The notes below the pieces were generated by a model that had not been told where the DNA came from, ran no database searches, and saw nothing but the letters and a program-made list of their open reading frames with translations. From Bacteroidota bacterium (GTDB lineage: Bacteria > Bacteroidota > Bacteroidia > Bacteroidales > Paludibacteraceae): a DNA stretch of 38,210 nt. Below, one piece after another: positions 1-12,200 of this stretch. Within the stretch, counting starts at the first letter, position 1. Every line of letters begins with the position of its first letter. The stretch spans positions 1-38,210 of the forward strand of contig JAFNAV010000046.1 in the NCBI GenBank assembly GCA_017860345.1, read 5' to 3'. The translations under genes and the position numbers were made by a program.

Positions 1-735
1 TGATTTGCTTTCAATTTTTGGTATCTTTGACATCACTAACAGCATTATCAAGCCGTTTCAAATAATCTCCATTGTTGTGATTTGCTTTCAATTTTTGGTA
101 TCTTTGACATCACTAACAGCATAAATGTTTAGAAAAATATATCATTGGTGTTGTGATTTGCTTTCAATTTTTGGTATCTTTGACATCACTAACAGCAGAC
201 CCAGACAAATGGTGGACTGACGGTATGTTGTGATTTGCTTTCAATTTTTGGTATCTTTGACATCACTAACAGCTTGTTTAGATTGTTATAAATTAATACA
301 GGAGTTGTGATTTGCTTTCAATTTTTGGTATCTTTGACATCACTAACAGCATCAGGTTCGATGCATGCTTTGAAAAATCTGTTGTGATTTGCTTTCAATT
401 TTTGGTATCTTTGACATCACTAACAGCTCGTCGGAAATAGCTCCTGCCTCGTAATTTGTTGTGATTTGCTTTCAATTTTTGGTATCTTTGACATCACTAA
501 CAGCTGGCTCCGGGGACATTAGTGCCGTTCATGGGTTGTGATTTGCTTTCAATTTTTGGTATCTTTGACATCACTAACAGCAAAAAATGATAGTGTAGAG
601 GGAGAAACCATGTTGTGATTTGCTTTCAATTTTTGGTATCTTTGACATCACTAACAGCAAAAAGACCACATACATATAGAGTGGGAACGTTGTGATTTGC
701 TTTCAATTTTTGGTATCTTTGACATCACTAACAGC
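1..735 (+). CRISPR. Type II-C CRISPR array, 10 repeats and 9 spacers, left end cut
   Basis: Ten near-identical copies of a 47-nt repeat that begins GTTGTGATTTGCTTTCAATT and ends ATCACTAACAGC. The copies start at -3 (only 43 nt visible, 1-43), 74, 150, 227, 304, 381, 458, 535, 612 and 689. Spacers are 30 nt except the one at 121-149, which is 29 nt. The array continues beyond the left edge. crRNA orientation is plus, because repeat positions 2-21 are perfectly complementary to the tracrRNA anti-repeat at 9060-9079. All full repeats look identical, including the last one next to cas2, so no degenerate terminal repeat is seen at this end. Each repeat contains TATCTTTG at repeat positions 26-33, a match to the Bacteroidota -7 box. 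Confidence 0.98.
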
Positions 736-812
736 ACGATTGGTGTAATTGATAGTTATTCAATGATTTATCGCAACTTTTAGGATTTGAAAATGAACTG
801 TTAGCTGAAAGG

Positions 813-883: not shown

Positions 884-1222
<339 letters not shown>

Positions 1223-1237
1223 TCAGTTTTAGTCGGA

Positions 1238-1258
1238 GGGCGATCTCAGGTCGCACCC
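1238..1258. repeat. Small imperfect hairpin between cas1 and cas2
   Basis: GGG and CGATCT (1238-1246) pair with AGGTCG and CCC (1248-1258), with one G-T pair and a 2-nt bulge. It sits in the 45-nt cas1-cas2 gap. It may be a REP-like element or a processing signal; no role can be assigned. Confidence 0.35.
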
Positions 1259-1261
1259 CAA

Positions 1262-2266
1262 CTAGAAAGTAGGATATGAAATTTTACGACTTTCTCCAAG
1301 ATAGCATTTGGCCAGCGAGGCTGTGGTTTGCCCTATGGCTATCATCAGTGGGCTACGCTGACCATTTATATTGACATCCAGCACCGGAATGCTGAGTAGT
1401 TTTGCTTTAATTTCTTTGGTCAGTTCCATTTCAAATTCGTCGTTTTTGCTGTAAAAAGGCACTTCTTCGGCAGCAATTGATTGTTTAATAGCTAACTTAT
1501 TGTTTATATTGTCTGTCTGCTTAAGATACGCTTCGTCGAATATTTCTACTACAAGTTTATCCACAAACGGGCGATATGGTTCCATAATATCGTCGGCCAG
1601 GCAATATGCGTTGTAGCGGTTGTGGTGATGTATGCCCAGCGTGGGGAGCAATCCGCTGCCAACCAGCGAGCGAGCCATAACAGCCCGCAAGATGGCATAT
1701 CCGTAATTCAACAGGTTGTTGGGCGGAGACCCTTCGCGCCCTCTGCGAAATCCCGGAAGCATCGGAAACATATTAGCCCAGTAATAGGCGGCAGCACGTC
1801 CTTCAAGATTCTCACTATCACCGCTTTTTACATCGCTTGCCCATGCCAGCATATTTTTTACGGTTTCGCCCCGTTTGGTATTTAATACATAAGCCTGATT
1901 GGCAATTTTAGCTTGAATGGTTTGTTGCCAAAGTTGTTTGCGGAGTGGGAGAGAGGAGTCTATTTGCGCCTGAAAACGTTCACTTTGTACCGTATTGCCA
2001 CTTAGTGGGAGTAGCAGCCCAACCGGCATCCTACTGCTATCGCAGGTAATCACGGCACTGTTGTTGGCCAATAGTGCCTCCATAAGTCCGTGGGTTATGG
2101 TAATTTGCTTATGATCTAATATAACCACTCCGATATCTTCTACCGGTATGGTATTGTTGCCGGTACGGTCGTCCATGCCGTTGGCGTCGGGTAAGTGTAT
2201 AACTAACTGGGAATTACGAAGGCTCAGATAAGCGGGATTCCCGAAATAAAGAGTGCGTTTAATCAT
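1262..2266 (-). CDS. cas1: CRISPR-associated endonuclease Cas1 (type II)
   Basis: A 334-aa Cas1, the integrase of new spacers. The N-terminal beta domain (about 1-95) contains the typical strand-turn GVVILDHKQITITHGLMEALLANNSAVITCD. The C-terminal helical domain carries the metal ligands: Glu155 in ENLEGRAAAYYW, the His cluster 213-215 in LGIHHHNRYNAYCLADD, and the acidic group around 225-229. GIHHHNRYN is the type II form of the GxHH motif. The gene starts 23 nt after the ATPase gene and runs directly into cas2, so the three probably share a transcript. No csn2 or cas4 is present, which fits type II-C. Confidence 0.96.
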   Translation of the reverse strand: MIKRTLYFGNPAYLSLRNSQLVIHLPDANGMDDRTGNNTIPVEDIGVVILDHKQITITHGLMEALLANNSAVITCDSSRMPVGLLLPLSGNTVQSERFQAQIDSSLPLRKQLWQQTIQAKIANQAYVLNTKRGETVKNMLAWASDVKSGDSENLEGRAAAYYWANMFPMLPGFRRGREGSPPNNLLNYGYAILRAVMARSLVGSGLLPTLGIHHHNRYNAYCLADDIMEPYRPFVDKLVVEIFDEAYLKQTDNINNKLAIKQSIAAEEVPFYSKNDEFEMELTKEIKAKLLSIPVLDVNINGQRSPLMIAIGQTTASLAKCYLGESRKISYPTF

Positions 2267-2289: not shown

Positions 2290-3423
2290 TTATGGATATG
2301 TTCTTTGTAACCAGCGCATTAAAAATATATCGTACACCCGGTAGGTGGTTTCGGTGGTTGAGTTTTCCTCCAAAATCATTTCTTTTTCCAGCAATGCATC
2401 AACCATTCGTTTGATGGTGGAAGAATTTCCAAGCTTATATTTTGTCATAAAGTCTTTAGAATAGAACTGATTAAGCTTTTCTTCTTTAGCCAAAGCTACA
2501 AGTAAATTCCACTGTTTGGCCGTAAGTAATTTACGGTATTGAAGAAAAACAGATTCCTGCTCATTTAAAATAATGGCACATTCCCGCTTTACAACTTCTA
2601 CAGTTACTTTTTTATGAAGATACGCCCGGTTGCAAACAAACTGCGTGTAAAAGGTATATGTGTTTGTCCAGTTTAAAATATAGTTGATGGCTTCTTCTTC
2701 AATAGTTCGTTTCCCTTTTTCGAAATTTAAGCGTATAAAATGTCGATATTTTTCTTTATCAATGCTTTTTAAAGTCAGAAATTGGGTGCTCGCATAAAAA
2801 GGGCGTTTCGCATTGGCGAAAATTTCTGTCAACGTATGTTTTTTACTTCCGCTGAAAATAAACTGGACGTTTTTTAATTGTTGAATTTGCGTGCGCAACA
2901 AGGCTTCGATGTTTTTTTCAGGATACTCTGCAATCTGCTGAAACTCGTCAATCGCCACCACTACGCGAAGTGGTTGCGTATCAAGAAACTGAAGCAATCT
3001 TTGTAAGGTGTATTCTTTGTCATTCACAGTTTGATAATTGAATTGCACCTGAGGCGTTCCGCTTATATCGTCGTAAGTAAATACAGCTCTGAATCCTTTG
3101 AGGATTTTTATAAATTGTTTCCCTATTGGTGTTTTTTCAGTGAATTTTCTTAATATCCCATCTGCCAAAAGATGAATAAAATCATCGATATTGCGCGATG
3201 AATAAACATCAATATACACTGTTGCAATACGTTTTTCTTCGTGTAAATGCTCAAAAAAACGGCATATTAAGCCGGTTTTACCCAATCTTCTCGACGAAAT
3301 AAGCGTAGTATTTGCATTGTTCTCTACATTCCTGAGTAGTTGTTGAAGCTCATCTTCTCTATCGCAAAAATATTCTTTCGACTCGTAATTGCTTATTAAA
3401 AAAGGATTTGATAAAGTGCTCAT
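2290..3423 (-). CDS. AAA+/STAND-like ATPase (archaeal-type ATPase family) next to cas1
   Basis: A 377-aa P-loop protein. It has a Walker A motif ISSRRLGKTG (about 42-51), a Walker B VVVAIDEF (about 154-161), a sensor-like strand QFIFSGSKKH (about 187-196) and a C-terminal winged-helix-like region (about 290-377). This layout matches the ATPase_2/'archaeal ATPase' family (PF01637-like). An upstream in-frame ATG at 3450 would overlap the -7 box (3448-3455), so I take the start at 3423, about 20 nt after the expected transcription start. The family is widespread and usually not CRISPR-linked. Its position, promoter-proximal in a unit with cas1-cas2, is unusual. The function is unknown; it could be an accessory to adaptation or an unrelated insertion. 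Confidence 0.8.
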   Translation of the reverse strand: MSTLSNPFLISNYESKEYFCDREDELQQLLRNVENNANTTLISSRRLGKTGLICRFFEHLHEEKRIATVYIDVYSSRNIDDFIHLLADGILRKFTEKTPIGKQFIKILKGFRAVFTYDDISGTPQVQFNYQTVNDKEYTLQRLLQFLDTQPLRVVVAIDEFQQIAEYPEKNIEALLRTQIQQLKNVQFIFSGSKKHTLTEIFANAKRPFYASTQFLTLKSIDKEKYRHFIRLNFEKGKRTIEEEAINYILNWTNTYTFYTQFVCNRAYLHKKVTVEVVKRECAIILNEQESVFLQYRKLLTAKQWNLLVALAKEEKLNQFYSKDFMTKYKLGNSSTIKRMVDALLEKEMILEENSTTETTYRVYDIFLMRWLQRTYP

Positions 3424-3447
3424 TGCGCTTATAATTGAATTGTTACA

Positions 3448-3499
3448 CAAATATACAACTATTTTTTATTTCGCAAAATGTATAACGCATTATGCGAAA
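3448..3499 (-). promoter_or_regulatory. Promoter of ATPase-cas1-cas2 with operator-like dyad
   Basis: Read on the minus strand: a -7 box TATATTTG (complement of 3448-3455) and a -33 TTTG (complement of 3474-3477), 18 nt apart. Over the -33 side lies a dyad: TTTCGCA (3469-3475) with TGCGAAA (3493-3499), and a nested CGCAT-T-ATGCG (3486-3496). The dyad would suit binding by a dimeric regulator; no regulator gene is visible nearby. Confidence 0.6.
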
Positions 3500-3624
3500 T
3501 TTAGCTTTGCGCGGATTTTTCAATCAGACGGCTGATTGCCCTCAACTGCTCATCACTTTTTTTTGCTAAATAAGCTCCATTGCAGGAACAAAGTATGCAC
3601 GTCAATCAAAAACTACGATTGATT

Positions 3625-4146
3625 TCACTCTTGATAATAATGATAGTAAACATCAGCAATATCATCAGCAAAACCATATCCACATACCGATGCCCAGTCC
3701 ACGCATTGCTCCGCACGCAGTTTGAACTTATCCAACAAGCCTTTTTTCTCCATAAACGCCAATGCAGCCTTGTAGTTGTTCCATGTCGAATCATAAAACT
3801 GTTCGGAATAATCGCCGTAACAATAAGTTAGTTCGCAAGCACTTTCAGGTAAATAAAGCATCACATCTGCCAACGCTTCGGGCGAAGGTTGTAAGCCTTT
3901 AAATTCTGATATAGCCTTTTTGGCTACAGAGAACTTTTCGGTGCTACGCTCCGGTTTTTCTACATTGAACTCTTTGCGAATCAATTTTTTATACTTTTCC
4001 ACCAATTCTTTTTCGTTGTGCGGGTTGAGGTAAAAGTCATAAAATTCTTTCACCGCCTTGTTTTTATCATACAAGTCGAGAATTTGCTCCACCAACTGCT
4101 CTTTAGTCAGTTTCAGAAGCTCTTTTTTGAGGGCTGGTTTGGACAT
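3625..4146 (-). CDS. DUF6155-type hypothetical protein between cas9 and the cas1 unit
   Basis: A 173-aa soluble, charged and largely helical protein. It starts with lysine-rich helices (SKPALKKELLKLTKEQLVEQ) and ends with a Trp/Tyr/Cys-rich tail (CVDWASVCGYGF, then ADVYYHYYQE). From memory it resembles the DUF6155 family of Bacteroidota; its activity is unknown. There are no membrane segments or nuclease motifs I can recognise. It is read in the cas direction, but gaps of 307 nt to cas9 and 201 nt to the ATPase start suggest its own transcript. Its upstream region contains the 11-nt protospacer-like site at 4235-4245, so it is one candidate for regulation by the crRNA-like RNA. Confidence 0.7.
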   Translation of the reverse strand: MSKPALKKELLKLTKEQLVEQILDLYDKNKAVKEFYDFYLNPHNEKELVEKYKKLIRKEFNVEKPERSTEKFSVAKKAISEFKGLQPSPEALADVMLYLPESACELTYCYGDYSEQFYDSTWNNYKAALAFMEKKGLLDKFKLRAEQCVDWASVCGYGFADDIADVYYHYYQE

Positions 4147-4234
4147 GTTTTTTTTGAACTTATGTTTTTTTAAAACAGGTGATTAATAAATAAATAACAC
4201 ATTATTAAAAAAAATCAGCATAAAATAAATTTTA

Positions 4235-4269
4235 CCATTCTATATATTCAATATTTTTTATTACCTTTG
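4235..4269 (+). promoter_or_regulatory. Promoter of the crRNA-like RNA, overlapped by its 11-nt seed target
   Basis: TACCTTTG at 4262-4269 is an exact TAnnTTTG -7 box, giving an expected start near 4275 on the plus strand. No good TTTG is seen 19 nt upstream. The -33 area instead holds CCATTCTATAT (4235-4245), the exact reverse complement of the last 11 nt of the spacer-like segment at 4393-4403. On the protospacer strand the flanking 3' bases, where a Cas9 PAM would lie, read TAAAATTT. The promoter call rests on one box only; the sequence match is directly visible. Confidence 0.5.
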
Positions 4270-4274
4270 TAGTG

Positions 4275-4430
4275 CTTAATCTTATGAGTAATGGCGAATA
4301 AATGTCATCACCATTTATTTTGTGGTTCTTATTTCCTCTCATAAGGGAATATAAGTAAACAAAAGGCATTCCAAAACAGAGAAATTATTGAAATATAGAA
4401 TGGGTTGTGATTTGCTTTCTTAATTTTTGT
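4275..4430 (+). ncRNA. Candidate crRNA-like regulatory RNA (spacer-like segment plus lone degenerate repeat)
   Basis: Positions 4404-4429 reproduce CRISPR repeat positions 1-24 with a 2-nt TT insertion at 4420-4421. The 3' half of the repeat, which carries the promoter box, is missing. The orientation is that of crRNAs, so bases 4405-4419 can pair perfectly with the tracrRNA anti-repeat. The 30 nt before it (4374-4403) act like a spacer; its PAM-proximal 11 nt match 4235-4245 exactly. The predicted 5' part forms a nested hairpin (CTTATGAG 4281-4288 with CTCATAAG 4338-4345; AATAAATG 4297-4304 with CATTTATT 4312-4319). The 3' end is not clear and may run into the cas9 end. The likely role is guiding Cas9-tracrRNA to a promoter for repression; this is inference. 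Confidence 0.55.
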
Positions 4431-4476
4431 CTAACAAATCCATATATTTTAAACTACATTTCTATGGAATGCCTTT
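4362..4476. repeat. 12-bp perfect inverted repeat around the lone repeat
   Basis: AAAGGCATTCCA (4362-4373) and TGGAATGCCTTT (4465-4476) are perfect inverse complements. The right arm is part of the last codons of cas9. In a plus-strand RNA the stem would close a 91-nt loop holding the spacer-like segment and degenerate repeat. In the cas9 mRNA it would fold at the stop codon. Confidence 0.6.
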
Positions 4477-7400
4477 CTATTTTTCCCAATCTATTAACTA
4501 TTAGTTTAGCGCAAACCTCCTTAATCATCGTCCCATCTATAGCTCTTTCCATTTTATTTAAAGTCGAAAATTCTGCTTTATTAATTATTGACGTAGCTAT
4601 TTCGTTGCGGACAAAGAAAATTTGATTTCCACTAAAACTCACCACTTTGTAGATATTCTGTCTTTTCTCTTTAGTTAATTCGATTTGTTTGTTTACGGAG
4701 ATATTTACTCTTTCATCTTCATTGGGTACATATACCAAATCATTTGGTGTTAAATAGAAATCGTTTTCACCTTTAAGTTCTACCGGTGGTAAACCCTGTT
4801 TTTGTCTTTCTATAACTACATTCAAGGGAATAGTTTCATAACTGCGTTTGCCGTTTTTGTCCTCGTAAACAGCAAAAAAGAGGTTCGTCCCCTTTGCGGC
4901 TTCCACGTATTTGTCTTTCTTATTCCCGTTTTCTCCCAATGAGAATTTACTCCCCAATTCAAATATACGAACTTTCCGAATGGGTTGGTGGGTACTACCG
5001 TCATTGTATTGCTTGATATTGGCATTCATTTCTTCCAATCCTTCAGGCGTAAAAGCAATCTCAGGATTATTGTTTTTGTATGCCAGATAGTTTTTGAGAA
5101 TTTTCTGAATGCCTGTATCGGTAATTGCAGCAATGGTTTTCAAATCGAAAGTGGTATCCACACTCTTTCGGGTAGCTGTGAGAATCTTTCCTTTAGGTAC
5201 TTTCACCCACGGCAAATCCACTTTGCCGGAAACGGTCTCTTTGTGCATCGGTTTTCGTATCGCCCAGTTCGTTCCTTCTTGCTTTACCTTGGCTTTAATT
5301 TTCTTACCGTCTTTTTCTGTCCATTTTTCGTAATTATTGGTTGCTTTGTTGATTACCCGAAGATTTTGCTTGAAACTTATCACAATGGTTTCCAATTCAC
5401 CTTTTGCATCAATAGTAAAATCATTATCAGCTATAACAAGAACTTCTTTTTCAATCTTGCCCCAAGGTTTTTTAAATTGCCATTGATAATTGCCTTTATC
5501 ATCGGGTTTGGTTTTAAAACAAAGTTTGTTTTTCAAATCATACCGAAACCCTTTTTCATCATTAGTACCTTTTTCGTGAGCATTTTTATTATTCAGGTAA
5601 TTAACGTGGTCTCTCGTCATACAGGCAATTACCAATGCATCCATTGCGTGGTGGCGGTGGTCAATCCGCTTCTTTTCAATTTTCACCTGTTTAGAATCAA
5701 TATTTACGTTATCTATCGGTAAATATTTTTGATATTGCTCATTCCAATAGGTAAATGCATCGCTATTGGTCAATTGATTCATCCGTTCAAAGCGTGGCAA
5801 AATCAAATCGCTCCAAACAGCGTCCATTCCCCAATCTTTTTTAAGTACGGTGGTAATTCTTCCATTTCCCGGAATCAGGTTTTTTGAATTGACTCCATCG
5901 TCTTCTTTATCGGCACGAACAATATTGGAAAGCAACGACGAAATAAACTTACTAATATAGCGGGTGTCGTTCATTTGCCGGGCAATCATTTTTTCGGGAA
6001 TTTCTTCCAATAACAGGTTTTGCCGCTTGGTTTTGCTTTTGGCATAATGCTCTTTTACAAAAGTTTGATATGCTTCTTCGGAAAAAATCTCAACCACTTT
6101 GCCCATTCCGCATTCCACTTTTGTGCCGTGGTGGTTTTTGATAAACTCCAGACCAAGTTGCTTGTCTTTCAACTGATTTACAGCAGCTTCGCAAATAACT
6201 TTATTGTTGAAACTATCATCGAAATAGCGAGATTTCGGGATAACGTGTTCTATTTGATAATCTTCGGTAAACAGCCGTCCGAGCGGGATTACACTTCCGG
6301 TGTAAGGAGAACGATATTTTTGTTCGAGCCACAGTTTGTAGCGTTGCAACTCTGATTTGCTGGGTTGCGACGATTTGCTGATTTTGACAATATCTTCGGG
6401 CAATTCAATCGTAGAGTTCAACACTCCATCTTCGTAAATTCTCAAGGCATCTTGCTGCATTGGAGAGAATGGACGAACATTTTCAACCGGAAGTTTCCCG
6501 TCAGAATTTTCTTTCAATTCTGCTAATAGTGCTTTTATCCGCAGGTTTGTAGCTTCGTTGTTGGTCACTTGTTCGGTTAGATACTTTCGGTCATCGGCAG
6601 TGTTTTTCATTTCACGGCCCAACTCAACGTGAATCTCGCTGAAAAAATCTTTTGCGCCTTGCCCGTATTGTTTCCAAATATCTCGAACCACCCGTAATGT
6701 TTCGGTAATTACCTGTTCAACAATGGGGTTGCGCAGAGAATGTTGTTTGAAATCTTCGAGGTATTGTTCAAGATCTGCGACAGAATTCCATTTTCCGGCA
6801 ATGTCGGCTTCCGAATGTCTGTCGTAAATCACATAGCCTGCCAACCAAATAGGCAACCCTTGAAAATGATTATTGCCGGTAAGATTAATTGACTTTTCAC
6901 GGACACGGGTTTTAATGCTCTCATCGTATTCTCCTGAAATTATCTTGTCAACTCGGCTTTGCGTTTTAGCATCAATAGCATCCCAACTCCAATACTTGCC
7001 GAGTCTCATTAATGGCAGAAGTTTTTTGATAGCCTTTTCGGAGTACGCCCCGTATTCGCTTGGGAATGGGGGAAACTTCTTGAATTCTTCTACAAAAGAG
7101 TTTTCATCCAACTTATATTTGTTGGCAAATGATTTCAATGCTGTTTCATATTCCTTTTTGTCGGTTACCGAATAGATAATGTGCCACAAATGCTGTTCTG
7201 TTTCGGCGGTCAGAAACTCAGTAGGGATATTTGCCACTTTATCCAACCTCCGACTGATTTCATAACCGGTTGTATTGCAAGGATATTTCTTCGATTTATC
7301 TTCTTCCTTTTCTTTTGAATCGTCAAAAACATAGTTCCAACGATATTTTGCAATCTCTTTTTCAACTTCTTTATTGAAGGCGGCAGGTTTTGCATTGGGA

Positions 7401-8953
7401 AATCTCTCTTTCAATGCGGGGCTAACCAAATGTTTCAAAATGTCTTTATGCCCAACCTCCTTTTGTGCCATCAAAAACTCAAATAGATTGACAACATCTT
7501 CTGTATTTTTCAAAAATTCAGAAGTAACATCTGCATCATCTCCTTTTCGGTATATTTTGAGATTCGATAGCCATTGCCACACACGAAATTCCTGGTAAAG
7601 TGGGTGTGATTTGGGAATGGCCTTCAGGTATTCCTTCACCTCATTGCCTTCTTTATCTTTATGAATTCTGTATTCCAACGAACAATTGCCAATGGAAGAT
7701 TTTTGGCTTCGCAGCGGACGTTGGTAGAAAATAATATCTTCAACAAACAAATGCACAAAGTCGCGTTTACTCAACGTGAGCTGTTGAGCTTCGTTGTTTC
7801 GATAAAGCTCACGTACGCAATCGTTATACAAATCATTGGTAAATAACTCCGGTTGCAATTCAAACTGTTTTTTCAGAATGGCGACTAATTCTTCCTTGTA
7901 GAATTTTCGTTCAATGGTGCGAACCAACTTGCCTCTAATTTTTTGCGAAGGATTTTGCAATAGGTTTTCGTAAATATAGGTGCCAACTGTTGTATTGCTG
8001 TTTTTTATCGTTATCTCTGTCCGTGCTTTTATTTTTTTATAAATCTTATCTTGATCTTTTTTACTCATCAAATTAATTTCATCAAAGGACGGTAAAGGCG
8101 TAATTTTACGTTTTTCTTTTCCAAGTGTATCTGTCCTTCTGTCCTTTACAATTTTAATGTTACCATCTTCATCAAATTCTTCTGTTATTAGAAATTCCTT
8201 TTCTGTATTAAGCCAATTTGGTTCAGCAGTAAAGGTTGCAGAGTATTCCCATCCATTCTCAAATATGACTTTATACCAAGTTTTCTTATCATTTTTTTTA
8301 TCTATATTCCCTTTCTCAATAAATACAATTTTCAATAAAGCACAGTATTCAATAATATCGGTTCTATCTTCTTCTTCACCCCTCAACTGGTAATATCCCC
8401 GCTTTTGGTTGAAATTAAGGATTATCCACGCCAATTCTTCTTTTGCAATCTTTTGGCTTAGTGCTTTCTTTCGCAGATAATAAATCGTCCAATCATAAGG
8501 GATTTTAGTCTCTTTTCCATTTGGTTTGGTGTAAAACAATTGAGGCTGCGATTGCTTGAAATCGCTCAACATTTCTTCAAAGGAGTTTATAAATATGAAA
8601 TCCCTATTATTGTAAGTTAACTTTGGTTCGGATTCATCCACAAACTGTCCGAAATGCTTTTCGAAATCAATTTCTTTGGCATAATGCTCAGGTAAAAACC
8701 CCAATACATTCAATACACGGTGCAACCGTTCACGACGAAGCAAATGACGCTCCCGAATGCGGCGAATTCCCCGATAACTTGTTCTGGCAGCAGTTTGTGT
8801 TTCTAAGGGCTTTCCACCACTAAAGGTGTCTAAAACATCCTGAGTCATCGGTATAATCCTACTTCCCATCCCCAGGATTTTCTTTTCATCTGTATCCACT
8901 AATGCCCACCCAATACTATTTGTTCCTAAATCGAGTCCTAGTATATTTTTCAT
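4454..8953 (-). CDS. cas9: CRISPR-associated endonuclease Cas9, type II-C, long form
   Basis: A 1499-aa RNA-guided DNA endonuclease. RuvC-I is at 1-20 (ILGLDLGTNSIGWALVD, catalytic Asp8). The Arg-rich bridge helix is at about 55-85 (RGIRRIRERHLLRRERLHR). RuvC-II is near 774 (EIHVELGREM), HNH at about 860-930 (YQIEHVIPKS, catalytic His near 901), and RuvC-III near 1100 (DHRHHAMDALV). About 400 C-terminal residues form the wedge and PAM-interacting region. All catalytic residues are present, so it should cut. The length is well above the roughly 1000-1100 aa of compact II-C enzymes but is usual for Bacteroidota. Its promoter is divergent from the tracrRNA. Its 3' end overlaps one arm of the inverted repeat around the crRNA-like element. 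Confidence 0.98.
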   Translation of the reverse strand: MKNILGLDLGTNSIGWALVDTDEKKILGMGSRIIPMTQDVLDTFSGGKPLETQTAARTSYRGIRRIRERHLLRRERLHRVLNVLGFLPEHYAKEIDFEKHFGQFVDESEPKLTYNNRDFIFINSFEEMLSDFKQSQPQLFYTKPNGKETKIPYDWTIYYLRKKALSQKIAKEELAWIILNFNQKRGYYQLRGEEEDRTDIIEYCALLKIVFIEKGNIDKKNDKKTWYKVIFENGWEYSATFTAEPNWLNTEKEFLITEEFDEDGNIKIVKDRRTDTLGKEKRKITPLPSFDEINLMSKKDQDKIYKKIKARTEITIKNSNTTVGTYIYENLLQNPSQKIRGKLVRTIERKFYKEELVAILKKQFELQPELFTNDLYNDCVRELYRNNEAQQLTLSKRDFVHLFVEDIIFYQRPLRSQKSSIGNCSLEYRIHKDKEGNEVKEYLKAIPKSHPLYQEFRVWQWLSNLKIYRKGDDADVTSEFLKNTEDVVNLFEFLMAQKEVGHKDILKHLVSPALKERFPNAKPAAFNKEVEKEIAKYRWNYVFDDSKEKEEDKSKKYPCNTTGYEISRRLDKVANIPTEFLTAETEQHLWHIIYSVTDKKEYETALKSFANKYKLDENSFVEEFKKFPPFPSEYGAYSEKAIKKLLPLMRLGKYWSWDAIDAKTQSRVDKIISGEYDESIKTRVREKSINLTGNNHFQGLPIWLAGYVIYDRHSEADIAGKWNSVADLEQYLEDFKQHSLRNPIVEQVITETLRVVRDIWKQYGQGAKDFFSEIHVELGREMKNTADDRKYLTEQVTNNEATNLRIKALLAELKENSDGKLPVENVRPFSPMQQDALRIYEDGVLNSTIELPEDIVKISKSSQPSKSELQRYKLWLEQKYRSPYTGSVIPLGRLFTEDYQIEHVIPKSRYFDDSFNNKVICEAAVNQLKDKQLGLEFIKNHHGTKVECGMGKVVEIFSEEAYQTFVKEHYAKSKTKRQNLLLEEIPEKMIARQMNDTRYISKFISSLLSNIVRADKEDDGVNSKNLIPGNGRITTVLKKDWGMDAVWSDLILPRFERMNQLTNSDAFTYWNEQYQKYLPIDNVNIDSKQVKIEKKRIDHRHHAMDALVIACMTRDHVNYLNNKNAHEKGTNDEKGFRYDLKNKLCFKTKPDDKGNYQWQFKKPWGKIEKEVLVIADNDFTIDAKGELETIVISFKQNLRVINKATNNYEKWTEKDGKKIKAKVKQEGTNWAIRKPMHKETVSGKVDLPWVKVPKGKILTATRKSVDTTFDLKTIAAITDTGIQKILKNYLAYKNNNPEIAFTPEGLEEMNANIKQYNDGSTHQPIRKVRIFELGSKFSLGENGNKKDKYVEAAKGTNLFFAVYEDKNGKRSYETIPLNVVIERQKQGLPPVELKGENDFYLTPNDLVYVPNEDERVNISVNKQIELTKEKRQNIYKVVSFSGNQIFFVRNEIATSIINKAEFSTLNKMERAIDGTMIKEVCAKLIVNRLGKIERHSIEM

Positions 8954-9024: not shown

Positions 9025-9055
9025 TTTGCTTAAATAAATTATTGTTGTATATTTG
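9025..9055 (+). promoter_or_regulatory. tracrRNA promoter
   Basis: TTTG (9025-9028), exactly 19 nt, then TATATTTG (9048-9055), a perfect Bacteroidota -33/-7 pair. The expected start at about 9060-9062 coincides with the first base of the anti-repeat. Confidence 0.85.
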
Positions 9056-9059
9056 CCTC

Positions 9060-9132
9060 AAATTGAAAGCAAATCACAATAAGGATTATTCCGTTGTGAA
9101 AACATTTAAGGCGGGGCAACTCGCCTTTTTTT
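9060..9132 (+). ncRNA. tracrRNA
   Basis: The anti-repeat at 9060-9079 is a 20-nt perfect complement of CRISPR repeat positions 2-21. Next comes a nexus-like segment AAGGATTATTCCGTTGTG. A rho-independent terminator hairpin follows (AAGGCG 9108-9113 with CGCCTT 9122-9127) with a T run to 9132. Size (about 73 nt), layout and position upstream of and divergent from cas9 are typical for II-C. Its promoter is one of the best in the window. Confidence 0.95.
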
Positions 9133-9229: not shown

Positions 9230-12200
9230 TTACGGAATCAGGGTTTTGAGTATGGTTTGGTTTTCCGGGTTTGTTACTTTGATTATCCACAGGCCTTGGG
9301 GCAATGTTATTTGCGAATCTGCTGCAATGTTTGTACTGCTTTGTAATTTGCCAACGGCATTATATACATATACGCGGGTTGGAGATTCTATGCCGGATAT
9401 ACTGACGGTATTGCCTTGCAGCGATATACTTACATTACCTGTAACGGGTTGTTGTAGGCCGGTGTTGGTGTCGTTCAGAATGAGCTCTGCCAACGGATCC
9501 CAATTGTCGTTGCCTTTGGTGAAATTTAAGGCGGTTATGGCTGTTCCATCGGTGAGTGTGGGTGTAGTAAGCTGGGTTGCCCAGGTGGCCCGTGAGGCAG
9601 CGTTGCTGGTACCTGAAGTTTCGGTTGTTCCGTACTCGTACATTCCTGCCGATTGTCCTCCCAATGAGTTGTTCCATCCTACGGGAAGTATTAATGACTG
9701 TCCGTTGTTGTCGGGGAAATTGGTTGTACCTATAGTGGTGTTGTAGAAAACCACTTCGCTGGTATTGGCTTGCCATGGGCGTCCAAAGTATCCGGGTTTT
9801 GAAAGATACTGCGATGCAGTTTCGGTGCCGGGCTGTGCCGAAGTTATTTTACACTCATACATCAGGTAACCGCGACCGCTGTTTTGTTGTGCTGCTGTAA
9901 TGTACGAAACATCGGTATTCACTTCGCTGGTATTCATAGCCAGATCGGTTTTGTAGAACACGGCAGTCATGGGACCAAAAATATAGTCGGTGCCACCCAT
10001 GGCTACACCTTTGTACATAACCATACGCACTCCCGAGCCACCATAAAACGAATCCTGACGTCCGGTTACGCGGCATTTGTTCAATATTACTTTGTCGGCA
10101 TTATTGGCTATAGCCAAAGCAGCTGCGCGCTCTACAAAACTTTTGTTCTGTACTGCCGTATTTCCGGCATCGGTAGGGCGTAAGCCTTTGCTTCCGGAGG
10201 CCCATTCTACCACTACATCCTGCGACTCTTTGAGCGATATGTATTGGTTGAACGAGTTTTCAAAAATTATATCGCTGGCTATAAAACCACTTGCAGTAAC
10301 CAGCACAGTAGCATTCCAGTAGGAGCCATTGGTGGTAACGCCACCCGTATTGGTATAACTTGGGTATCCGTTTTCTTTATTTACGGCAAGCAGGTCGGCG
10401 TGCCATTTTTGGTCGGTTCCCATGCTGTAATAATTGTACCCATGTCCGTAATAAGAAGTGATGCGTACTGCATTTTCGTCAATATCTACTCCTTTGTTTT
10501 TCAGAGCTATTGATGGCGATGCGGCAGCATTTTTAAGCGTAACGTTGGGCTGACTTACCACTAACATTTCTTCGTAGTTGCCCGGATCAATCATTACTGT
10601 TACTCTATCGGCAGCAGTACGGTTCATATTGCTGATAGCGCTCAGAGCTTCGTTGATGGTTTTGTATGCTTTATCAGCGCCCACGTAAATGGTCGAAACA
10701 AAATCAACTACTTTAAGCGTGGTGATGTCGGTAATATACGTAGTGGCAGCAGAACTACCTATGGTAATTGTGACATAACCATCGGCGGTACCGGTGTATG
10801 TATAGCTGGTGGTTTCAAATGTACTTGTGCTATTCGATGCGGTAGTTACGGCTGTGCCTCCTTCAATCGAAAAATCGGCTGCGTAGTAGTAGGTTACCAC
10901 AACTTTTTCACCTACAGCCACAGGTACTTTAATAGTAGCTCCTGATTTGCCCAAAAGGTGGCCTTTGCTCTGCTCATTGCTAATGTTTCCGGTAAATTGC
11001 ATTCCTTTATAATTAGCTGTGGCGGTGGTAATAGCTTTGTCGTCGAACGACCAGTTGGTTACTTTACCAAAAGATATGGCTTTGCTTGTGGCGGCATCCT
11101 GAACAGTAACATTGGATGTAAGTAGTTGCTTGAGAGGATATTCGTCGAGCCCCGATGTGGTGACTGAATAAGTGCCGTTGCGCAGAGCAATACCGTTAAT
11201 ACTACTGAAAGAATAGCTGTAGCCGGACTCGTTCAGGTTGTTGAAAACAAACTGGAGTTTACTTTGCTGTTCTGCAGTAAGTCCGGGTGTGGTAATGGTT
11301 AGTGCATAAGTTGATTTCAGAGCAAAGCTCAGATTTTTAGTAACAGGCGCTCCTGAAACAGACAGGCTGTTGTCGGTTAATGCATAATCGTTAATTCCTG
11401 TAGCTGAGATAGTATAGGTGAAACCATTTTCAAGGTTAACACTGTAGGTGGCAGCTTGCTTGTCGATGCTAATTTCGGGAACATAAACCGAACTGGTTGC
11501 GGGAGTAAATACAAGTCCCAGTTTGGATATATCGGTACCTAATCCGCTAATGCTGCCACTAACCGTATAGAGATCCACTTTTTTCAGCGAAAGATTGAAT
11601 GTGTTGGTCGATGAGCTTACTTCCACCGTTTTAGCCGTAGTTATTATATATCCGTTGGCATCCTGTATGCTTACCGAGTAGGTGAAGCCAACCGGCAGAG
11701 CGGCTGTATAGGTATTGGAAGTAGTAGCGCAAACCCATGATTTGCCATTGGCAGTAAATACTACTTTGTAACCGGAAGGTATATCGGCAGCTTGGGTTAT
11801 ATCCACTGTTCCGCTGATTGACTGATAAGTGGCTGCTTTGCGAAGAATACGATAGTAAAAAGGCTTATCCAAGGAGTCGTATATTTTAAAATTGCCGGCT
11901 TTTTGAGCGTAAAATTTTAAAACCGATCCACTGTTTGAGCTGGCCAGTATGTCGGCCTGACCGGTGGTAGTTTGATTTATGAAATTGATGGAGCCGGCTG
12001 CATTTTGCGATTTTACAAAGATTGTAATTTCGTCGTCTTCGTTGGCAGTAAGGGTGAAATATCTGTTGGCGGCAGCCGTAGAGTTTACGTACAAGGCTCC
12101 GGTAAGTGTTTCATTACCAAACGTAGTAGGAGCGCCGCTGGAATCGTAGCGAGTGAGATTAGTGTTGGAGGTACGCAGGCGGTCGCTGGTGGCTGATGCG

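What the first reader, a model, noticed from the sequence alone, without database searches (positions are those of the whole stretch)
4235..4429. A lone crRNA-like element in a II-C locus whose 11-nt seed matches the promoter region beside it
Seen: a degenerate CRISPR repeat (4404-4429) far from the array, in crRNA orientation and still able to pair with the tracrRNA. The 11 nt directly before it (4393-4403) are the exact reverse complement of 4235-4245. The match stops exactly at the repeat junction and at the 12th base, so it is anchored at the Cas9 seed. The target overlaps the -33 area of a plus-strand promoter with a perfect -7 box, and lies in the 5' region of the DUF6155 gene. Known: S. 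pyogenes tracr-L uses an 11-nt match to repress the cas promoter without cleavage, and F. novicida scaRNA uses a degenerate repeat. Inferred: Cas9-tracrRNA binds here and represses the RNA itself (feedback sensor of free Cas9), the DUF6155 gene, or both. I know of no described II-C case.
Basis: partly seen in the sequence, partly recalled or inferred. Interest (0 to 1): 0.9.

Follow-up and report, generated by a model that had tools for sequence, protein, structure and literature searches.

The report
Self-silencing guide RNA beside Cas9
Between two CRISPR genes of a bacterium lies a tiny operon that seems to make a guide RNA which tells Cas9 to sit on, and switch off, that operon's own promoter; a second, distantly related bacterium has the same design written in different letters, which suggests that some Cas9 systems of this type carry a built-in self-control or guard element.

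Summary
Window 4404-4419 is an exact copy of the first 16 nt of the CRISPR repeat, outside the array, in crRNA orientation. The 11 nt before it are the exact reverse complement of 4235-4245, 27 nt before a perfect -7 box. Shuffles reach this in 6 of 5000 tries. Spacings are nearly equal: target to repeat 169/175 nt, -7 box to repeat 142/146, terminator arm to repeat 31/32. The modules have no sequence similarity. Over 97,985 non-coding positions in 142 Cas9 loci, the seed-plus-box geometry (limits set afterwards) occurs only at these two lone repeats.

Best reading: a crRNA-like RNA that directs Cas9-tracrRNA to repress its own operon's promoter without cutting. Closest are CreTA/CreR of type I, tracr-L of II-A and scaRNA; the searches made here listed no II-C case. 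Both modules hold a mini-ORF ending 2 nt before the terminator stem, so a CreTA-like guard module is possible. Transcription, Cas9 binding, PAM and target gene are untested.

The parts
4235..4245 (+). target of the seed (operator candidate); looser complementarity to 4256
   Evidence: exact reverse complement of 4393-4403; 77% ungapped over 4235-4256/4382-4403
4226..4234 (-). PAM-side flank, read on minus strand TAAAATTTA
   Evidence: sequence; L106 counterpart TGAAATAAA
4262..4269 (+). -7 box TACCTTTG of the module promoter (Bacteroidota consensus TAnnTTTG, recalled); start of transcription near 4275 is inferred
4302..4358 (+). mini-ORF, 18 aa, MSSPFILWFLFPLIREYK; stop ends 2 nt before the stem; alternative 17-aa ORF 4291-4344
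   Evidence: shuffles reach >=18 aa in 151 of 2000
4361..4373 (+). 5' arm of the closing stem / terminator
4374..4403 (+). spacer-like guide; seed 4393-4403
   Evidence: arm end to repeat 31 nt
4404..4429 (+). lone degenerate CRISPR repeat; 4404-4419 exact
4465..4476 (+). 3' arm of the closing stem, followed by CTATTTTT; lies inside the last codons of cas9
9048..9079 (+). tracrRNA: -7 box TATATTTG 9048-9055 and anti-repeat 9060-9079, then nexus AAGGATTATTCCG
4454..8953 (-). cas9 (1499 aa; II-C by locus layout) with RuvC-I GLDLGTNSIGWA and HNH EHVIP (motif names recalled); its tail ERHSIEM replaces the varied short ends of relatives
3625..4146 (-). DUF6155 gene, divergent from the module
   Evidence: PF19652, E 3.6e-26
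2290..3450 (-). AAA ATPase gene between DUF6155 and cas1
884..2266 (-). cas2 (884-1216) and cas1 (1262-2266)
1..736 (+). CRISPR array, 47-nt repeats, 29-30-nt spacers; another array with the same repeat lies on contig C54 of the same genome

Best explanation
The stretch 4235-4485 is a small self-repressing operon. A promoter with its -7 box at 4262 makes an RNA of about 200 nt: a short 5' part with a mini-ORF, then a spacer-like guide and a degenerate CRISPR repeat held inside a terminator stem. The repeat part pairs with tracrRNA, RNase III and Cas9 take it as an ordinary crRNA, and the 11-nt seed brings Cas9 to 4235-4245, over the -33 area of the same promoter. Eleven matched bases allow binding but not cutting, so Cas9 acts as a repressor. 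When Cas9 is scarce, busy with new crRNAs or blocked by an anti-CRISPR, the promoter opens. Shown here: repeat, seed match, box, stem, and a second locus with co-varied seed and target. Inferred: transcription, tracrRNA pairing in the cell, processing, Cas9 binding, repression, the purpose.
For: Second independent locus L106 with a different seed (13 nt) matching its own promoter region, same orientation and spacing. Of 97,985 non-coding AT-rich positions in 142 loci, 38 have the seed geometry and 4 have seed plus box; those 4 are the window element (1) and the L106 element (3 overlapping). Relaxed scan of 161 stretches without a coding mask: no other site with <=1 repeat mismatch and >=11 nt seed. 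Shuffles 6 and 3 of 5000. No sequence similarity between modules: alignment 116.5, shuffled mean 121.3, sd 7.5. The 5' half of the repeat, the part that pairs with tracrRNA, is kept; in L106 the lone repeat pairs with tracrRNA better (-32.7) than the array repeat does (-29.1). Precedent: S. pyogenes Cas9 with short-form tracrRNA and a crRNA with only 11 matching nt represses Pcas (PMC11417352, passages).
Against: Only 2 of 142 Cas9 loci carry it (120 of the 142 have both cas9 flanks in hand); no DNA match covering the module in the 35 other same-genus genomes searched. The geometric filter was set after both cases were known. No expression data. PAM unproven: real protospacers have A-T-A at positions 3-5, the self targets A-A-A. 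The guide is partly paired in the predicted fold. The -33 box is weak by eye. G000 is an 86% complete draft.
Confidence: 0.7

Rival explanations
1. CreTA-like guard: the same operon, but its purpose is to hold down a toxic mini-ORF or RNA in its 5' part. Losing or blocking Cas9 frees the toxin, so the cell is addicted to the II-C system. (A version of the best explanation, not exclusive with it.)
For: Both modules target their own promoter region and have about 90 nt of 5' RNA that a guide does not need; both hold a mini-ORF (18 and 22 aa) whose stop ends 2 nt before the stem. H. hubeiense creTA is one operon whose CreA seed (nt 1-5, 7-11) pairs to the operon's promoter, with a mini-ORF followed by a stem-loop (PMC8501985, section 12 and passages). 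The window peptide looks hydrophobic.
Against: Such ORFs arise in 151 and 67 of 2000 shuffles; the window has two competing ORFs; the peptides are unlike each other; the tandem rare codons described for known CreT are not clearly there (an ATA-AGG pair in the window ORF, of which only AGG is rare). Toxicity untested.
Confidence: 0.35
2. CreR- or tracr-L-like feedback: the site lies in a region shared with a divergent cas promoter, and the purpose is to set the level of Cas proteins.
For: L106 target is 23 nt from the cas9 start codon; window target is 89 nt from DUF6155-ATPase-cas1-cas2. In the window the stem also carries a T tract on the minus strand, so cas9 transcripts may stop there and the downstream genes would need their own promoter (inference).
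Against: In the window the cas9 start is 4.7 kb away. By eye no minus-strand TAnnTTTG near the target; only a one-mismatch box at L106 (sequence).
Confidence: 0.3
3. RNA sponge or decoy: the lone repeat ties up tracrRNA or Cas9, and the DNA match is incidental.
For: Repeat half that pairs with tracrRNA is preserved.
Against: Does not explain the seed-target match and its geometry in both loci.
Confidence: 0.1
4. Dead remnant: an old array end or inverted repeat, match by chance.
For: Lone or broken repeats without such a match exist in other loci; 2 of 142 is rare. Near miss: L194 has a 2-mismatch repeat-like site with an 11-nt reverse-complement match at -378, so single matches of that length do occur.
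Against: Two loci with the same three-part geometry; no other among 97,985 positions; no further copy found in the genome, so it does not look like a repetitive element.
Confidence: 0.12

Closest known systems
CreTA of type I-B, operon form (Haloarcula hubeiense; PMC8501985)
   Same: One promoter drives a short 5' part with mini-ORF, then a crRNA-like element with degenerate repeat; a ~10-nt seed next to a PAM targets that same promoter; sits beside the cas operon.
   Different: Cas9, tracrRNA and presumably RNase III instead of Cascade and Cas6; one repeat, after the guide; toxicity unknown.
CreR of type I and V-A (review PMC12737573)
   Same: crRNA-like RNA outside the array, repression of transcription through the loaded effector.
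   Different: CreR targets the cas operon promoter; here the sure target is the RNA's own promoter region; II-C is not named in the passages read.
tracr-L of S. pyogenes II-A (PMC8616872, PMC11417352)
   Same: Cas9, 11-nt match, promoter repression without cleavage.
   Different: tracr-L is one RNA joined to tracrRNA; here a separate RNA that needs tracrRNA in trans; the review says tracr-L is not found in other subtypes.
scaRNA of Francisella novicida (PMC9458426, PMC8616872)
   Same: Separate RNA with a degenerate repeat and a short match (15 bp), works with tracrRNA and Cas9.
   Different: Targets a lipoprotein operon, not itself.
scaRNA of Neisseria meningitidis, II-C (PMC13431127)
   Same: Small RNA of a II-C locus bound by Cas9.
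   Different: Acts on efeO mRNA; the authors' searches found no guide-like target.

Membership tests
crRNA-like Cas regulators (CreA/CreR/scaRNA class) | CRISPR repeat or degenerate repeat outside the array | tested here: met
crRNA-like Cas regulators (CreA/CreR/scaRNA class) | seed-anchored partial match to a promoter region | tested here: met
crRNA-like Cas regulators (CreA/CreR/scaRNA class) | functional PAM beside the target | tested here: inconclusive
   one protospacer family in 8 contigs gives A-T-A at 3-5; self targets A-A-A
crRNA-like Cas regulators (CreA/CreR/scaRNA class) | RNA is made and loaded into the effector; promoter repressed | not testable with these tools
   needs RNA-seq, RIP, reporter
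CreTA | operon promoter is the target of its own crRNA-like RNA | tested here: met
   (sequence geometry only; promoter predicted from one box)
CreTA | toxic creT RNA or mini-ORF | tested here: inconclusive
   mini-ORFs present, near chance singly; toxicity not testable
CreR | target in the cas operon promoter | tested here: inconclusive
   L106 next to cas9 start; window next to DUF6155-cas1-cas2 without a clear minus-strand promoter
tracr-L | guide, repeat and tracrRNA in one transcript | tested here: not met
   window: tracrRNA lies 4.6 kb away; L106: same strand, but a terminator-like stem lies between, so read-through is not excluded there

The most novel reading that the evidence does not exclude
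A CreTA-type addiction or guard operon in a Cas9 (type II-C) system: Cas9-tracrRNA loaded with the operon's own crRNA-like RNA represses a promoter that also drives a toxic mini-ORF, so that loss or inhibition of Cas9 is punished. [quoted passage not shown]
Probability: 0.3. Interest if true: 0.92.

Novelty: new variant of a known kind. Interest (0 to 1): 0.82.

Why it matters
If right, the use of degenerate-repeat RNAs to turn CRISPR effectors into self-repressors reaches type II-C, in a form that needs tracrRNA in trans. It would make testable whether Cas9 systems have guard or feedback modules that sense free Cas9 and anti-CRISPRs. The geometry (target, -7 box 27-29 nt on, terminator stem around guide and repeat) is a search rule for further cases.

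Tried and rejected
Homology of the module by DNA: of 60 genomes (own included), 9 had a match at E <= 0.001; those outside the own genome are short stretches (27-62 bases) and none covers the module. I read one of them (L005, an AT-rich promoter-like match) and saw that L009 is a CRISPR array; the rest were not read. Upstream regions of five DUF6155 relatives: by eye not homologous. Transposon or MITE: no further copy in the own genome, no target-site duplication by eye. Rfam: nothing at gathering score. A tracr-L-like pattern in 395 genomes gave 0, but this is uninformative: one search shows that its gap limit would have missed L106 itself (gap 64). Further cases: none in 54 loci of one family or in 19 stretches of the same genus (near miss L194, see rivals); L121 has lone repeats beside tracrRNA without a convincing target. 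The scan hid non-array sites under open frames of 100 aa and so did not list the window element itself; searches use no such mask, masks open frames of 120. PAM from phages and plasmids: no usable protospacer in the rows listed (one search listed 25 of 133 records). The guide region has no good phage match (best listed E 2). Of 8 viral-contig scans 6 gave nothing, one a partial 20-nt match, one eight contigs. First null was spoiled by arrays (its 21% is meaningless) and was redone with arrays masked. The tracrRNA nexus GGATTATTCC recurs in the cas9 coding strand (18 of 135 loci); taken as codon coincidence. Dropped before counts: duplicates noticed (L047, L039, L017, L142) and L052, which has no cas9. 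One search finds two further pairs of near relatives left in (L113/L229, L227/L228).

Full report
What is there. The window is contig C73 of an unnamed draft genome (G000, 86% complete). Same-genus contigs match records titled Bacteroidetes or Paludibacter (by equal contig lengths), so it is taken as a Bacteroidota genome. It holds a II-C-like locus: array 1-736 and, on the minus strand, cas2, cas1, an ATPase, a DUF6155 gene and cas9; the tracrRNA anti-repeat is on the plus strand at 9060-9079. Cas9 looks intact in its RuvC-I and HNH motifs (motif names recalled). In the 307-nt gap between cas9 and DUF6155 lies a copy of the first 16 nt of the repeat (4404-4419). The 11 nt before it are the exact reverse complement of 4235-4245. 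In the same-genus relative L038 only 7 nt separate cas9 from DUF6155, so the gap looks like an added cassette. The end of cas9 in the window also differs from that of relatives, just where the right arm of a 12-bp inverted repeat begins.

Anatomy. Reading the plus strand: target 4235-4245; -7 box TACCTTTG at 4262; mini-ORF 4302-4358; stem arm 4361-4373; guide to 4403; lone repeat from 4404; second arm 4465-4476; T tract. On the minus strand the same stem is followed by TTTTGTTT, so it may end cas9 transcripts as well (inference). The lone repeat can form 16 bp with tracrRNA at -23.1 kcal/mol.

Chance. Shuffles of 4147-4403 that keep dinucleotides reach an 11-nt junction match in 6 of 5000. That alone is suggestive, not decisive.

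A second case. I collected loci by Cas9 similarity. Named genome contigs gave 22. After removing duplicates that I noticed, 88 + 54 = 142 loci with a Cas9 match were scanned, the window among them; 120 of them have at least 600 nt after and 400 nt before cas9. Nineteen further stretches of the window's genus were added. One other locus has the same thing: L106 (G111, another family of the order; Cas9 52.7% identical over the best segment). There the lone repeat (10875) lies between cas9 and tracrRNA. The 13 nt before it equal the reverse complement of 10700-10712, and a perfect -7 box TATATTTG starts at 10729. Shuffles reach this in 3 of 5000. Spacings, window against L106: target to repeat 169/175; target to box 27/29; box to repeat 142/146; stem arm to repeat 31/32; repeat to second arm 61/30. 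The two modules show no sequence similarity. The seed and its target thus differ together while the layout stays.

Specificity. A filter that ignores the repeat (reverse-complement match of 11 nt at -200 to -140, TAnnTTTG 20-34 nt after the target start) was run over 97,985 non-coding, AT-rich, array-masked positions on both strands. Of these, 38 have the seed match, 198 the stem, 2128 a box at the right distance from the junction. Four have seed plus box: one in the window and three overlapping ones in L106; all four have the stem and lie at the lone repeats. The limits were chosen after both cases were known, so this is a statement of rarity, not a clean test. The relaxed scan of 161 stretches gave 296 hits and no other with <=1 repeat mismatch and >=11 nt; its range (-320 to -60) leaves out a near miss in L194 (2 mismatches, 11 nt at -378).

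PAM. A spacer from the C54 array has exact 28-nt matches in 8 viral contigs. The flanks are GTATAGAT (3), GTATAATA (3), ACATAGAT (1) and GTATAAAT (1). Positions 3-5 are A-T-A there; the self targets have A-A-A (TAAAATTTA, TGAAATAAA). One related protospacer family cannot define a PAM; NNAWA is compatible, and a need for T at position 4 is not excluded.

Mechanism. The parts fit a crRNA-like RNA that uses tracrRNA and Cas9 to cover the -33 area of its own promoter. Passages of PMC11417352 report that S. pyogenes Cas9 with the short tracrRNA and a crRNA with 11 matching nucleotides represses Pcas, a direct precedent for a separate guide. What the loop is for is open. In L106 the target is 23 nt from the cas9 start; in the window it is 89 nt from DUF6155-ATPase-cas1-cas2, while the cas9 start is 4.7 kb away. 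Self-targeting with an otherwise needless 5' part and a mini-ORF recalls the CreTA operon of H. hubeiense (PMC8501985, section 12 and passages). The mini-ORFs (18 aa MSSPFILWFLFPLIREYK; 22 aa in L106) both stop 2 nt before the stem, but ORFs of that length occur in 151 and 67 of 2000 shuffles. I hold guard and feedback as about equally likely.

Literature. Seven searches of the open library listed no II-C case of a crRNA-like RNA that represses a cas promoter or its own; subscription papers are missing from it. Passages seen: PMC12737573 (CreR in type I and V-A; CreTA clarified only in I-B), PMC13431127 (meningococcal scaRNA, no guide-like target found by its authors), PMC8616872 (tracr-L in some II-A, not found in other subtypes), PMC11417352, PMC9458426 (ectopic repeats). 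Of PMC8501985 I saw the abstract, passages and section 12. The original tracr-L, CreR and scaRNA papers were not read.

Verdict. It remains a prediction from sequence.

Noticed in passing
window 1-736: Each CRISPR repeat contains TATCTTTG, a perfect TAnnTTTG -7 box, so every crRNA may have its own promoter, as recalled for Neisseria II-C; the lone repeat has lost this half.
   Followed up: no
L121:11823-11990 (G107), cas9-minus orientation: Two degenerate repeats just downstream of tracrRNA; the second is followed at once by a strong hairpin and preceded by TAAATTTG, a possible further crRNA-like RNA without a convincing target (10-nt match at +213).
   Followed up: partly
L273 and L274 (Riemerella phages RAP44 and CRP19): Phages carry II-C type repeat-spacer mini-arrays, one full repeat in L273 and three in L274, ending near a terminator-like hairpin; possibly phage mini-CRISPRs or RNA anti-CRISPRs.
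   Followed up: partly
L101, L031, L098, L149, L141, L196, L198, in or near arrays: By eye, CRISPR repeats broken after GTTGTGA[AT]TTGCT by short, partly palindromic inserts (REP-like), several times in L101.
   Followed up: no
L015 and L018, between cas9 and cas1: A 225-aa gene right after cas9 resembles REP-associated tyrosine transposases (motif recalled, the family search failed); palindromes follow cas9 in L048-L050.
   Followed up: no
window 2290-4146; L038; G001:C4 (L191): DUF6155 follows cas9 at 7 nt in a same-genus relative and lies between array and tracrRNA in G001; it may be a II-C accessory gene of this genus.
   Followed up: partly
tracrRNA nexus and cas9 5' coding region: GGATTATTCC of the tracrRNA nexus recurs in the cas9 coding strand near its start in 18 of 135 loci (codons of the RIIP motif); probably coincidence.
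   Followed up: partly
window contig start; G000:C54:1-770: The array runs off the contig start; an array with the same repeat begins contig C54, probably the other half.
   Followed up: partly
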